Notes under the pieces: generated by a model
The model's input: only the letters and a program-made list of their open reading frames with translations
Told to the model about the DNA's origin: nothing
Databases searched by the model: none
Translations under genes and position numbers: made by a program
Shown here: piece by piece, positions 14,368-22,587 of the stretch
Position numbering within the stretch: the first letter of the stretch is position 1
Layout: the number at the start of each line of letters is the position of its first letter
From: Macrotis lagotis
Lineage: Eukaryota > Chordata > Mammalia > Peramelemorphia > Peramelidae
Reading direction: 5' to 3'
Assembly (NCBI RefSeq): GCF_037893015.1
Contig: NC_133666.1
Coordinates: 569,178,389-569,242,388, forward strand
DNA: 64,000 bases

Positions 14368-14402
14368 TGTAAGGGGAAGCTCTGGACCGGGGCCACCCAT
14401 GA

Positions 14403-14416
14403 AGGTCATATGACCT
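14403..14416. promoter_or_regulatory. perfect palindrome AGGTCATATGACCT in U3
   Basis: Two AGGTCA nuclear-receptor half-sites face each other with a 2-bp spacer (inverted repeat 2). The same site is in the 3' LTR at 22205-22218. It could bind a nuclear receptor or, through the central CATATG, an E-box factor; this is inference only. Confidence 0.5.
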
Positions 14417-14557
14417 GGGCCGTGAGACCCCTGGAAGTCTGAACCTGCCTTGTAAGGTATCTTATAGGGTACTGGGACGGCTTCACTAACAGGATGTGGC
14501 TCCGCCCATGGGTTGGAACTTGGGAGGAGCATGTACCCCGGGAAGAAAGGGTTACTG

Positions 14558-14565
14558 GATAAAAG
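14558..14565 (+). promoter_or_regulatory. TATA-like box of the LTR promoter
   Basis: GATAAAAG lies about 50 bases upstream of AATAAA, which would place the transcription start at roughly 14588. Confidence 0.6.
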
Positions 14566-14608
14566 AGCGCTGTGCAAAAGTTCTGGGGGCCATTTTCTGC
14601 TGTTCATG

Positions 14609-18900: not shown

Positions 18901-19604
18901 ATCTTGCTGCTTCGGAGCTTTCTTTACGCTCGTTTTCAGAAGAAATCCCCGAGTGGGCTTCTCTACTCTGCCTTTGTTTTGTTGTTTCGCTTCCTTTACC
19001 ACCTCCCCTTCGGGGATGGACTTTACTTCCACTGTCACGTCCCCCATCTGTTATAGCTCTGTCCCCTGTGGAAGGCCCTAATGTTTTTACTGATGCTACA
19101 AAAAAGAACCGGGCAGCTGTCTATGTTCCTTCCAGAAAAATCTTGAAAGTTTTCCCAACTGAATATTCTTCTGCTCAGAAAAATGAACTTCAAGCTATAA
19201 TCTTTGCTCTACAACTATTACAACATGAACCCTTTAATCTTATCACGGATAGCCTCTACTGTGCTATTTCTCTTCACAATCTTCCTGAAGCTCAGCTCAA
19301 TCTTCGCTCTTCTGCTATTTCCCCTCTGCTCTACAAAGTTCAGACCTTACTATTGCAAAGGACCTCTCCTGTCTATGTTCTTCATGTCCGTTCACATGTG
19401 TCCTCCTCTGGTCCTATTTTTGCAGGAAATGACGTCGTTGACAAAGCTTTACTTTGCCCGTTGCAGAAGGAAGCCTCTATGGCACATTCTAAATACCACT
19501 TATCTGCCAGATCTTTAAGACATCTCTTTGGCCTTTCTCAAGAGCAGGCCAGAGCTATAGTAAAAAGATGCTCTGCCTGTGTCCCTTTTTTTTCCCAGAC
19601 CTAA
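18850..19604 (+). CDS. pol: pol segment 2: RNase H and integrase zinc-binding domain, shifted frame
   Basis: The open stretch in this frame starts before 18825. RNase H acidic residues are visible in VFTDATKK (Asp, 19092), NELQAI (Glu), LITDSLYC (Asp) and FAGNDVVDK (Asp). Next comes the integrase HHCC finger, HSKYH then CSAC. Family order is kept, so this is the normal continuation of RT in the wrong frame rather than a separate gene. The stop at 19602-19604 follows the T8 tract. Confidence 0.85.
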
Positions 19605-20397
19605 GGAAATGGCTGTTAACCCCAGGGGTGCCTACCCTAATGCACTCTGGCAAATGGATGTAACCCACTATACTAGATATTTGATACATGTATGTGTGGA
19701 CACATACTCCAAATTCATTATGGCCACTGTCCAACCTAAGGAGACAGTGAGGTCAGTTATTATCCATCTTCTTACTTGTTTTTCCTCTTTCGGGGTTCCC
19801 GAATCTATAAAAACTGATAATGGTCCAGCCTATAAATCACATGCCTTTACACAGTTTTGCTCTGAATTTTCTATAAGACATATCACTGGTATTCCCTATA
19901 ATCCTACTGGCCAAGCCATAGTAGAACGTGCCAACAGGTCTATAAAGACCCTTCTTGAAAAACAAAAAGGGGGAATTTCCCCGGGCATAAAGAATTCTCT
20001 GCAGGCACGCCTGGCACAAGCCCTCTATACCCATAATTTTTTATCCATTTCTGAGGAGGGTTTGGTTCCTGCCATGGTCTTTTTTACTCATCCACAGTCA
20101 CAGGGCACAGATATGGCAAAAATCTCACACACCCCTACTATATGCATACCAGGCACAAAAGTGTACTGGAAAGATCATGAGGGTGTTTGGCATGGCCCTG
20201 GAATAGTACGATTCAGAGGACAGGGTTTTCTATCCATACAGCCCGAAGATGGACCAGATGGAGAAGAAGTCTGGGTGCCAATCAAATGGGTCCGAGAAGT
20301 CACTACGGCGCAGAAAGACAAGGAGAGGACAGAGAGGACTGAAACGAGCAAGACTGAGACGAGAAAGGAGGCTACAGGTGTGCAGAAAAAGGACTGA
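19594..20397 (+). CDS. pol: pol segment 3: integrase catalytic core and C-terminus
   Basis: The D,D-35-E residues are at 19657 (WQMDVTHY), 19816 (KTDNGPAY) and 19924 (GQAIVERAN). The Asp2-to-Glu spacing of 35 residues fits retroviral integrases. The C-terminal part contains an SH3-like run (GTKVYWKDHEGVWHGPGIV) and ends in a Lys/Glu/Thr-rich tail that overlaps the env start by about 150 bases in another frame. Confidence 0.9.
   Translation, partial: PRPKEMAVNPRGAYPNALWQMDVTHYTRYLIHVCVDTYSKFIMATVQPKETVRSVIIHLLTCFSSFGVPESIKTDNGPAYKSHAFTQFCSEFSIRHITGIPYNPTGQAIVERANRSIKTLLEKQKGGISPGIKNSLQARLAQALYTHNFLSISEEGLVPAMVFFTHPQSQGTDMAKISHTPTICIPGTKVYWKDHEGVWHGPGIVRFRGQGFLSIQPEDGPDGEEVWVPIKWVREVTTAQKDKERTERTETSKTETRKEATGVQKKD
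20079..20099 (+). promoter_or_regulatory. candidate splice acceptor for env mRNA
   Basis: 'ggtcttttttactcatccacag' gives a pyrimidine tract and CAG at 20095-20097, about 150 bases before the env ATG. It is the best acceptor seen by eye in this part. Use is unproven. Confidence 0.35.
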
Positions 20398-22174
20398 AAT
20401 GACATTGGGTTTGACGATGCTGTTCGCCAACTTAGGCGCGACAATTGGAATGACGGTTACTGATCAAAAGTATTGGGCTTTCATCCCCTCTCCACCATGG
20501 CTGAAAGCTCTATCTTGGACTGACCCTATGCCTCAGTTTCTTCTGTATGGGAACTTGTCATTAATGTTTCCTGGTTCAGGTCAACCTGTGTTAAAACAAG
20601 ACACTGTTTCATATGAAGGGTTCAACTTCACAGGACTCGTATATGGACTTCCATTTTGTGTACATAAGTGGGTCGAGGGGATTTGGTCAAATAACGGGTG
20701 GCACTTCACTTATGCAGAAAACAGTTCCAGTCCCAATTGGTGCCCAGACCTGAGAAATAAACTTATGGTTCTAGGGGATAAGGGGAACCCTAGACGATTT
20801 CATTTATATAATTGGGTATTAGACCCTGACAACCCTGACCAGACATGGTCAACTGCTTCTACTGCATTACCTTACCCTTTCTGTGACCTAAACGCCAAGA
20901 GAAATTTGACAAAATTAGCCAGATTTCCAGGTTTTCTGCCTTACACACCGTGCCATACTCATCAATGTGCAAAGACTACTGTCCGCTATTACAATCACTC
21001 AGAGGCATTGACGTCTTGTCACTACACCTCTGAGTACATTCCAGATCAGGAATCTCCTGGGTATCCCTTACCAACATATATTCATTCCCCAAGCAGTACT
21101 ACAGTAGCAGGATTGGAAAAGGTGATAGCCGCAATAGGTGGTGTAGCTGTTCAAGGGATGCCTGAAGTGACAGGTGTGCCTGATGTGACTAATAACATTG
21201 CATTGTCTGGCACTGTTTGTGTGGGAAATAGGTTTTTGTTCATGGTGGATCCAGGTAATGCTTCCTCTATCCAGGAACATCACGCATCAACATCAGTTTA
21301 TAACCTCACCTGTGTTAGCTGCAAGCTTTTTACCTGCCTGAATGGTTCCCTTCCTCTAGACTCGAAGGTATATATTGTAACAAGACCTCATTACGCCTTT
21401 ACGGTGGTAAAAGAGGGACACTGGTACCCTAACAAAGGTGAGGAGATTTTAGATACTCTGCAAAATCAATTATCTACTCTTAGAAGAAAGAAAAGATGTG
21501 TGAGTTGTGTTGTACTAGGGATCACTCTTCTTGTAGAGGCTATTTTGGCCTCTTCTGCTTTGGCTTTATCTATATCTAATGCTCAGAACAGTATTGTACA
21601 AGCCCAATCTCTACATAGTCTCATGAAAAATGTTTCACTTGGATTTAAACATCAAGCTGTTATAGATAAGCAACTGCTCTCTGCTATTGTAGAGTTACAG
21701 ACAGCCACTTCCCTCCTGTTAGAAAAGGCGTATTCTTTAGAATTACAACAAAAACTGAGATGTGATTATAGATACACCTCCTTTTGCTTAACAAGAGCTG
21801 TATATAATGAATCTCAAATTGCATGGAATGAGATACGGGCTCACCTTCATGGTCTCAATAAGAATAACATAACTTTTGAGATTGCAAAATTGATTCAGAT
21901 CACCGACTATATAAACAAAGCATCTTATGATGATCTTACTCCTAATCATGTGGCTGAAAAAATTATAGAGGGTCTCAAAAAACTCAATCCTACGACTCTC
22001 TTTCAGTCTCTCCTGCCTACTCTTACTTTACTTTTAATATTGTGCTGCCTTGTCCCCGTTTTCTTGAAATGCCTTTTGTCCTTTCTTAAGATAACCCTGG
22101 AACGATTCAAAGGAGACCTTTTTCCTTTGTCACCTTTTACCCCCCCTGTTGTTAACGAAAAGGGGGAATTGTAA
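20249..22174 (+). CDS. env: Env glycoprotein precursor (641 aa), intact
   Basis: Surface/transmembrane glycoprotein for receptor binding and membrane fusion. The first 50 residues are strongly basic (Arg/Lys-rich, 18-48), then a hydrophobic signal segment (51-70) leads into SU. SU has several N-x-S/T sites and a CVSC motif. A furin-type site RRKKR ends at residue 416 and is followed by a hydrophobic fusion peptide (419-440). TM has C505-x7-C513 without the gamma-type CC, so it is betaretroviral in kind. A membrane anchor lies at about 588-606, with a cytoplasmic tail after it. The ATG at 20249 is the first in this open frame; an alternative start is M51. The stop TAA (22172-22174) is inside the 3' LTR, and the polypurine tract is within the last codons. 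Confidence 0.9.
   Translation: MDQMEKKSGCQSNGSEKSLRRRKTRRGQRGLKRARLRRERRLQVCRKRTEMTLGLTMLFANLGATIGMTVTDQKYWAFIPSPPWLKALSWTDPMPQFLLYGNLSLMFPGSGQPVLKQDTVSYEGFNFTGLVYGLPFCVHKWVEGIWSNNGWHFTYAENSSSPNWCPDLRNKLMVLGDKGNPRRFHLYNWVLDPDNPDQTWSTASTALPYPFCDLNAKRNLTKLARFPGFLPYTPCHTHQCAKTTVRYYNHSEALTSCHYTSEYIPDQESPGYPLPTYIHSPSSTTVAGLEKVIAAIGGVAVQGMPEVTGVPDVTNNIALSGTVCVGNRFLFMVDPGNASSIQEHHASTSVYNLTCVSCKLFTCLNGSLPLDSKVYIVTRPHYAFTVVKEGHWYPNKGEEILDTLQNQLSTLRRKKRCVSCVVLGITLLVEAILASSALALSISNAQNSIVQAQSLHSLMKNVSLGFKHQAVIDKQLLSAIVELQTATSLLLEKAYSLELQQKLRCDYRYTSFCLTRAVYNESQIAWNEIRAHLHGLNKNNITFEIAKLIQITDYINKASYDDLTPNHVAEKIIEGLKKLNPTTLFQSLLPTLTLLLILCCLVPVFLKCLLSFLKITLERFKGDLFPLSPFTPPVVNEKGEL
22158..22169 (+). other. polypurine tract
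   Basis: AAAAGGGGGAAT directly abuts the 3' LTR. It primes plus-strand DNA synthesis. It is also coding for the Env C-terminus. Confidence 0.9.
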
Positions 22175-22587
22175 GGGGAAGCTCTGGACCGGGGCCACCC
22201 ATGAAGGTCATATGACCTGGGCCGTGAGACCCCTGGAAGTCTGAACCTGCCTTGTAAGGTATCTTATAGGGTACTGGGACGGCTTCACTAACAGGATGTG
22301 GCTCCGCCCATGGGTTGGAACTTGGGAGGAGCATGTACCCCGGGAAGAAAGGGTTACTGGATAAAAGAGCGCTGTGCAAAAGTTCTGGGGGCCATTTTCT
22401 GCTGTTCATGAATAAAGATGCTGCTGTTGTAAACCAGGCTCGTGTGTGGCTGTGAACTTCCTTCCCATCCCCCAGGGCGGAAGCCGGAGTGCACCCGAAG
22501 ACCTCGGAGAGAGGTAAGCCCGCGGCTAGGCTCATTCTCAAGGCAGAAGCAGGTGCTCGGGTGCACGTTTCAAATGTGCACGTTTCA
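22170..22587 (+). repeat. 3' LTR (418 bp)
   Basis: The sequence is the same as 14368-14785, with the same TATA-like box, palindrome, AATAAA and donor-like site. It ends GTTTCA and is followed directly by the target duplicate TATCAC. Confidence 0.95.

What the first reader, a model, noticed from the sequence alone, without database searches (positions are those of the whole stretch)
14368..22587. Young, nearly complete betaretrovirus-like provirus in a marsupial-type genome
All parts are present and in order: LTR, Lys3 primer site, gag, pro, pol, env, polypurine tract, LTR. gag, pro and env are open over their full length. This is unusual for an endogenous copy and suggests a lineage that was infectious recently or still is. 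I cannot tie it to a named family.
Basis: partly seen in the sequence, partly recalled or inferred. Interest (0 to 1): 0.9.

Follow-up and report, generated by a model that had tools for sequence, protein, structure and literature searches.

The report
Recently amplified bilby endogenous retrovirus copy
This is a recently inserted retrovirus copy in the greater bilby genome, belonging to a family in which many of the sampled copies have lost the envelope gene through one shared deletion, so the genome seems to hold both a virus-like form and its jumping-gene descendants.

Summary
Window 14368-22587 is an LTR-to-LTR class II (betaretrovirus-like) provirus with open gag, pro and env and identical 418-bp LTRs. 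Pol is broken by two frame breaks. The five gene pieces compared with solved structures are nearest to betaretroviral proteins.

The 40 LTRs scored as most like this one belong to a star-like, young family. Of their 18 readable 3' ends, 13 carry the identical 1.54-kb env deletion at a 6-bp microhomology and 5 keep that region. Of 12 deleted copies that still have the env start, 11 keep a 98-99-codon frame with the arginine-rich, Rec/Rem-like signal peptide. This copy also has a 58-bp tandem duplication of U5 end plus primer site, absent from 18 other copies; I read it as a reverse-transcription scar.

'Infectious recently or still' is not shown. Amplification is recent, retrotransposition or help in trans explains most sampled copies, and evidence of selection on Env is weak. 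No canonical dUTPase was found, so I file it as class II, betaretrovirus-like: a new member of a known kind.

The parts
14362..14367 (+). left target-site flank TATCAA
14368..14785 (+). 5' LTR, 418 bp, identical to the 3' LTR; TATA-like ATAAAAG 14559-14565 and AATAAA 14609-14614 (motifs read by eye)
14788..14805 (+). primer binding site 1 (Lys3-type, recalled), two bases CA after the LTR
14806..14863 (+). second copy of a 58-bp tandem duplication (last 38 bp of LTR + CA + primer site); its primer site 14846-14863 is the variant type
14964..17048 (+). gag, 694 aa, open; p24 and CCHC knuckles
15573..15752 (+). 45-bp (15 aa) tandem repeat in gag, 4 units here; anchor spacing in 17 other copies fits 2 to 4 units, two spacings slightly off
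16922..17773 (+). pro, 283-aa frame, -1 to gag, DTGA protease; no dUTPase or G-patch found
16988..17035 (+). gag-pro shift site GGGAAAC with downstream hairpin (-24.4 kcal/mol, z -3.33)
17743..17749 (+). pro-pol shift site TTTAAAC
17740..18900 (+). pol piece 1: RT with YMDD, thumb; ends at frame break 1
18825..19604 (+). pol piece 2: RNase H and integrase zinc finger; ends at frame break 2
19564..20397 (+). pol piece 3: integrase core with the D, D, E residues (placed by eye)
20249..22174 (+). env, 641 aa, open; arginine-rich signal peptide, RRKKR cleavage site, GP41-type TM
20534..22074 (+). stretch missing from 13 of 18 sampled 3' ends (shared env deletion; ATGCCT at both ends). Present here
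22158..22168 (+). polypurine tract
22170..22587 (+). 3' LTR
22588..22593 (+). right target-site flank TATCAC

Best explanation
This is an env-bearing but pol-defective copy of a class II endogenous retrovirus family that multiplied very recently in the greater bilby germline.

Shown: full anatomy; identical LTRs; a star-like set of near-identical copies; one shared env deletion in 13 of 18 sampled 3' ends; pol break 1 absent from all 15 other copies examined and break 2 absent from 11 of 12.

Inferred working: the element is transcribed from the LTR. Gag, Gag-Pro and Gag-Pro-Pol come from two successive -1 shifts, and Env from a spliced RNA. The arginine-rich Env signal peptide acts like Rec/Rem/Rej in exporting unspliced RNA. 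A Lys-type tRNA primes reverse transcription.

An ancestral copy lost SU and TM by a reverse-transcriptase jump between two ATGCCT hexamers but kept LTRs, gag, pro, pol and the signal-peptide frame. That form then spread mainly inside the germline, IAP-fashion, while env-bearing copies spread in parallel, with packaging and recombination between the two. This copy could move only with Pol supplied in trans, if its pol breaks predate insertion.

Its doubled primer site is best read as an integrated reverse-transcription accident: minus-strand DNA ran past the template's primer site (variant C) into uncut U5 and was then joined to plus-strand strong-stop DNA carrying the tRNA-copied site (variant A).
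For: Anatomy. Betaretroviral kinship of the five pieces compared: RT nearest 7sr6 (HERV-K), 1.9e-95, next best chain 2.5e-51; integrase nearest 7usf (MMTV), 1.8e-43; capsid nearest 6hwi (MPMV), 9.2e-20; protease nearest 3sqf (MPMV), 4.7e-16; Env TM nearest ERVK-7, 2.3e-20. The virus names of 7sr6, 7usf, 6hwi and 3sqf are recalled; the RNase H piece was not compared.

Family: 40 LTRs differ pairwise by 0-8 substitutions. LTR-LTR substitutions in 13 pairs are 0 in six, 1 in three, then 2, 4, 5 and 5 (two pairs also have one gap base). The pol piece of 14 copies gives an unresolved star.

Env deletion identical in 13 of 18 3' ends, microhomology, signal-peptide frame kept in 11 of 12.

Primer-site types: 7 A and 11 C among 18 other copies, none doubled.

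Pol break 1 differs from 15 of 15 copies; break 2 from 11 of 12 (all 12 env-deleted), the exception being C1:680 Mb.
Against: LTR matches were 40 scored of 252 first-look candidates, so counts favour young copies close to this one. Env-bearing pairs are not older than env-deleted ones (0, 0, 1, 2, 5 against 0, 0, 0, 0, 1, 1, 4, 5 substitutions), so a parent-to-offspring order is not shown by LTR age. The target-site flanks differ at one base. Break 2 lies in a run of eight T: it may be a sequencing or slippage artefact, and its sharing with C1:680 may be coincidence. Env-deleted copies are not one clade on the pol piece (unresolved; AU p 0.0525 for holding them together), which fits recombination but also lack of signal. 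The kept signal-peptide frame may only reflect youth. Retrotransposition in the germline was not observed.
Confidence: 0.8

Rival explanations
1. A still-infectious or very recently infectious exogenous betaretrovirus keeps re-seeding the bilby germline; the env-bearing copies are its traces and the env-deleted copies are side products.
For: Identical LTRs; env open here and in the C5 copy; a second, 88% identical Env protein is annotated in the bilby, so env has been kept through some divergence; private env changes 8 synonymous and 8 non-synonymous, P = 0.017 uncorrected.
Against: Most sampled 3' ends lack env (13 of 18). Pol is broken here; the C5 copy's gag is broken; of the other two env-bearing copies with the whole env stretch, C8 has its signal peptide cut at codon 37 and C1:460 a frame change near the env end. 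No exogenous virus or individual-to-individual polymorphism was examined.
Confidence: 0.25
2. An older, fixed family kept alike by gene conversion or by chance, so that LTR identity overstates youth.
For: One of six target-site bases differs between the flanks; LTR identity over 418 bp alone allows up to 1.2-2.8 My at rates of 3e-9 to 1.27e-9 per site per year (rates from passages of PMC13247528; 3e-9 is my rounding of about 6e-9 per generation over 2 years).
Against: The interior is as alike as the LTRs: pol piece 3-18 differences in about 1700 bp among 14 copies, at many loci with distinct target-site duplications.
Confidence: 0.1
3. The intact env is kept because the host uses it, for example in the fused tissue of the bandicoot-type placenta.
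For: The bilby genome paper names co-option of further env genes as an open question for Peramelemorphia (passages, PMC11239497); this env is open and has a cleavage site and a TM.
Against: A young multi-copy family with a broken pol is expected to have some open env genes without any host use; no expression data; env is neither single-copy nor old.
Confidence: 0.04

Closest known systems
MEBrv 3 of Dasyuridae (PMC11334065: abstract, all of Results and first part of Discussion read)
   Same: Class II marsupial family, env lost, gag-pro-pol kept, recent copies with identical LTRs, env-less form amplified.
   Different: About 7.3 kb, LTR 469; a degraded gammaretrovirus-type envelope remnant reported. 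Here the LTR is 418, the envelope is GP41/type-B-like, and env-bearing near-twins survive. No Peramelemorphia were among its 19 Australian genomes (Table 2). Its sequences were not compared.
MEBrv 5, koala representative pcERV640 (same paper, Table 3)
   Same: 7.8 kb, betaretroviral (type B) env, intact copy with identical LTRs.
   Different: LTR 373 against 418; host koala; sequence not available here, so kinship is untested.
phaCin-beta of koala (PMC9231498: abstract and first part of Results read)
   Same: Recently expanded class II family in a marsupial, many near-identical loci, 6-bp target-site duplications.
   Different: Has a dUTPase and a gammaretroviral env; here no dUTPase was found and env is GP41-type.
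HERV-K (HML) / MMTV group
   Same: RT nearest HERV-K, integrase nearest MMTV (names recalled), Lys3-type primer site, long arginine-rich Env signal peptide (Rec/Rem likeness recalled).
   Different: RT is 65% identical to one unnamed public protein (P0001) and next 62% over 58% of its length (P0050); the long, named ERVK-type relatives lie lower (120 of 423 listed). No dUTPase or G-patch detected.
Mouse IAP / MusD type env-less elements (recalled)
   Same: Env-less derivative outnumbering the env-bearing form.
   Different: Here the deletion is one clean junction in copies about 99% identical to env-bearing ones, so both forms coexist.

Membership tests
Betaretrovirus (genus, canonical) | Lys-tRNA primer binding site (PMC3621094 passage) | tested here: met
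   14788-14805 is the Lys3-type 18-mer (recalled)
Betaretrovirus (genus, canonical) | dUTPase encoded in pro (PMC3621094 passage) | tested here: not met
   No Pfam dUTPase at E <= 10, no match outside the protease in solved structures at E <= 0.1, no excess over shuffles against three ERVK-type relatives, z 0.22, 0.59, -0.45 (two more tried could not be used). A worn remnant is not excluded: structure prediction did not complete
Betaretrovirus (genus, canonical) | gag, pro and pol in three frames linked by two -1 shifts (recalled) | tested here: met
   GGGAAAC at 16988 and TTTAAAC at 17743, both in frame; hairpin. An AAATTTG at 17716 is also in frame but lies upstream of the pol frame's opening
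Betaretrovirus (genus, canonical) | Pol falls with betaretroviruses | tested here: inconclusive
   Nearest solved RT is HERV-K, nearest integrase MMTV (names recalled). The 34-row RT tree groups the window with P0001 (100/95) and these with P0050, P0119 (97/94); no named exogenous betaretrovirus was in it
Betaretrovirus (genus, canonical) | 6-bp target-site duplication (recalled) | tested here: met
   Exact in 10 of 13 family pairs; 5 of 6 bases here; one 5-bp shifted, one none. Three of five solo LTRs also show 5-bp matches in a shifted register
Type-B-like (non-gammaretroviral) Env | GP41-family TM, HERV-K-like | tested here: met
   GP41 1.2e-14; ERVK-7 TM 2.3e-20
Rec/Rem/Rej-type signal peptide | long arginine-rich leader that exports unspliced RNA | tested here: inconclusive
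   The leader RRRKTRRGQRGLKRARLRRERR is there; activity was not tested
MEBrv 3 | same lineage by sequence | not tested
   Its sequences were not at hand
MEBrv 5 | same lineage by sequence | not tested
   Its sequences were not at hand
phaCin-beta | dUTPase and gammaretroviral env (PMC9231498) | tested here: not met

The most novel reading that the evidence does not exclude
The bilby genome holds the change from retrovirus to retrotransposon in progress. Within about the last million years or so one env deletion that removed SU and TM but spared the RNA-export signal peptide produced a form that outgrew its env-bearing, about 99% identical parent, while the two still exchange sequence by co-packaging. 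The signal peptide survives as a free-standing Rec-like gene.
Probability: 0.4. Interest if true: 0.65.

Novelty: new member of a known kind. Interest (0 to 1): 0.45.

Why it matters
I found no description of this family in print (searches; open-licence papers only). The 2024 survey that defined marsupial betaretrovirus clades had no bilby or bandicoot among its Australian genomes (PMC11334065, Table 2). The bilby paper counts over 45,000 LTR retrotransposons and leaves env genes in its unusual placenta as an open question (passages). Env-bearing and env-less forms at about 99% identity in one genome let the steps of env loss be dated and tested, which is seldom possible because the parent form is usually long gone (my judgement). 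For conservation genetics, recent and possibly polymorphic germline insertions deserve a read-level census.

Tried and rejected
Splicing as the cause of the C3 copy (jump from window 14950 to 20746): rejected, no GT-AG at the junction. Pol breaks as inherited family traits: rejected for break 1 (15 of 15 other copies differ), nearly so for break 2 (11 of 12 differ; the env-bearing copies were not fetched there). Double primer site as a family trait: rejected, 0 of 18 other copies. Env-bearing copies older than env-deleted ones: not borne out. IMG/VR scan for RT relatives: 24 pattern matches, none confirmed. Gag search of the large protein set: 7074 candidates, none at E <= 0.001, although capsid matches solved betaretroviral capsids, so that tool's reach was probably too short. 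The Env search listed only two proteins, both bilby; only 8000 candidates were scored. SPOC-like hit at 44917-45264: no solved-structure hit at E <= 0.01. tRNA genes matching primer-site variant C, a census of all env copies and the mate LTRs of 11 more copies could not be obtained because the machine did not answer.
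Full report
Observation. The stretch 14368-22587 is an LTR-to-LTR provirus. Both LTRs are 418 bp and identical. The 5' LTR is followed by CA and a Lys3-type primer site (tRNA type recalled). gag, pro and env are open. Pol is read in three pieces, so it has two frame breaks: one between the RT thumb and RNase H, one between the integrase zinc finger and core. The catalytic signatures YMDD, DTGA and integrase D, D, E are present in their pieces (read by eye). A polypurine tract precedes the 3' LTR. Flanks are TATCAA and TATCAC.

Unreported anatomy. A 58-bp unit (last 38 bp of LTR, CA, 18-bp primer site) is tandemly doubled. The first primer site is type A (GAACAGGGAC end), the second type C (GCACAGGGAC end). 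gag holds a 45-bp tandem repeat, 4 units here; anchor spacing in 17 other copies fits 2, 3 or 4 units, with two spacings slightly off. The gag-pro overlap has GGGAAAC in frame with a strong hairpin, and the pro-pol overlap has TTTAAAC. Env starts with an arginine-rich leader and has an RRKKR site.

Host. The window lies in G000:C9, and G000 has 3,655,600,598 bases. The lengths of C1 (934,355,481) and C5 (273,854,888) are the contig lengths of two Macrotis lagotis Env records. The bilby assembly is given as 3.66 Gbp (abstract in the listing).

Kinship. Five pieces were compared with solved structures. The best hits are HERV-K RT, MMTV integrase, MPMV capsid and protease and ERVK-7 TM; virus names of entries are recalled except ERVK-7, which the table prints. 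Against 5.77 billion proteins RT has one relative at 65% (P0001, no species given), then P0050 at 62% over 58% of the query; 120 of 423 were listed. A tree of the window and 33 chosen rows groups window and P0001 at 100/95, and these with P0050 and P0119 at 97/94. A quick tree of the window and 119 of the 120 listed rows also has P0001 nearest, then P0050 and P0119. No named exogenous retrovirus was in either tree. dUTPase, named as common to all betaretroviruses in PMC3621094 (passage), was not found, nor was a G-patch. I therefore call it class II, betaretrovirus-like, and not a canonical Betaretrovirus.

Family in the genome. The LTR search scored 40 of 252 candidates, so everything below concerns the LTRs it scored as most like this one. 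Forty full LTRs were examined: 17 5' LTRs, 18 3' LTRs and 5 solo LTRs (two repeat fetches, L009 and L010, dropped). Two more 5' LTRs were fetched as mates. Pairwise the 40 differ by 0-8 substitutions. Thirteen copies have both LTRs in hand: 6 of 13 have no substitution between LTRs, 3 have one, and one each has two, four, five and five; two of these pairs also have one gap base. The five that keep the env region have 0, 0, 1, 2 and 5; the eight env-deleted ones 0, 0, 0, 0, 1, 1, 4 and 5, so neither form looks older. Pooled over the first 11 pairs this is 12 in 4598 sites, about 0.43-1.03 My at 3e-9 to 1.27e-9 per site per year; with the two later pairs it is 19 substitutions in 13 pairs, about 0.6-1.4 My (my arithmetic). 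For this copy alone the 95% upper bound is 1.2-2.8 My (rates in passages of PMC13247528, with 3e-9 my rounding). The sample is biased to young copies.

Env loss. 13 of 18 3' ends jump from window 20533 to 22069 with the hexamer ATGCCT at both ends. The other five (this copy, C8:34, C5:51.7, C1:460 and the gag-pol-deleted C3:163) keep the region. One junction in 13 places points to one founding deletion. Of 12 deleted copies whose env start is present, 11 keep a 98-99-codon frame with the arginine-rich leader and one is cut at codon 32; a thirteenth (C2:130) has lost the start in a second deletion. That the frame is kept for a Rec-like use is inference; youth alone would also keep it. Env itself is open here and, read in two overlapping pieces, in the C5 copy; C8 is cut at codon 37 and C1:460 changes frame near the end.

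Pol and gag in other copies, observed without mending. Across break 1, 15 of 15 other copies differ in length by one base from the window. Across break 2, 11 of 12 do; all 12 are env-deleted copies, because the env-bearing ones were not fetched there. The exception is the copy at C1:680, which also matches this copy in having 4 gag repeat units. The RT-RNase H piece is open to its end in 10 of 15 copies; of the rest, two (C9:511 and C4:177) map only in part and three are broken. gag is open to the end of the fetched piece in 9 of 17 copies, runs 664 aa (the length expected with two repeat units fewer) in one more, and is broken in 7, the C5 copy among them. Open forms of single genes thus exist in the family; I did not look for, or single out, a copy with every gene open.

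Relations. On a 1.7-kb pol piece of 14 copies (two partial ones dropped) the tree is a star. Env-bearing and env-deleted copies are interleaved, but no branch is well supported and one clade is not firmly rejected (AU p 0.0525). Private changes are 8 synonymous to 8 non-synonymous in env (P = 0.017), 7 to 11 in RT (P = 0.074), 2 to 6 in integrase (P = 0.575) and 7 to 13 in 5' gag (P = 0.097). This is weak evidence that Env was under selection before the copies landed. The test ignores transition bias, four regions were tested, and none was corrected for.

The double primer site. 18 other copies have a single site, 7 type A and 11 type C (17, the C3 copy). A site is rewritten from the tRNA at each cycle (established retroviral mechanism, recalled), so the first, type A, site beside the LTR is the one last used, and the second, type C, is copied from the RNA. 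Minus-strand DNA that ran 40 bases past the template's site into uncut U5, joined end to end with plus-strand strong-stop DNA, gives exactly this order. This is inferred. A search for the tRNA genes did not complete.

Verdict. Real, young, ordinary in kind, with an unusually clear side-by-side record of env-bearing and env-deleted forms. Infectivity, now or lately, is not shown.

Noticed in passing
L014 1601-3966 (G000:C3:163.9 Mb): Copy with near-identical LTRs (1 substitution) that lost leader-gag-pro-pol-early env in one jump (window 14950 to 20746), no splice signals, exact 6-bp target duplication.
   Followed up: partly
L024/L025 (G000:C7:206.48-206.49 Mb): LTR pair identical to each other but with non-matching flanks (AACCCA / CAAAAA); possible recombination between two insertions.
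   Followed up: no
G000:C1 (protein P0122): A second bilby Env, 650 aa, 88% identical, annotated as ERVK-6 Env-like: an older or separate sub-lineage whose locus was not located.
   Followed up: partly
L032 (G000:C2:130.9 Mb): Env-deleted copy with an additional deletion from window 18331 to 20425 but identical LTRs, so it must have moved without its own complete pol if the deletion came first.
   Followed up: no
L033/L034 (G000:C1:680.89-680.90 Mb): Env-deleted copy sharing this copy's 4 gag repeat units and break-2 length state: possible template-switch relative.
   Followed up: partly
L012, L015, L038 and the C1:346 Mb pair: Flank matches of 5 bp in a shifted register beside the 6-bp duplications of other insertions; target-site length may vary in this family.
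   Followed up: no
12741-14355 and 23711-25291: The provirus sits in old dispersed repeats: the left flank is about 72% like 23711-25291 and similar to other stretches of the window.
   Followed up: no
46678-46927: 250-bp array of the hexamer ATATAG, 95% matches.
   Followed up: no
9188-9574 (-): Weak reverse-transcriptase fragment (RVT_1, below cut-off), probably an old LINE (inference).
   Followed up: no
44917-45264 (+): Weak SPOC-domain match below cut-off inside a stretch repeated at 48135-49496 and 61273-62641; no solved-structure hit.
   Followed up: partly
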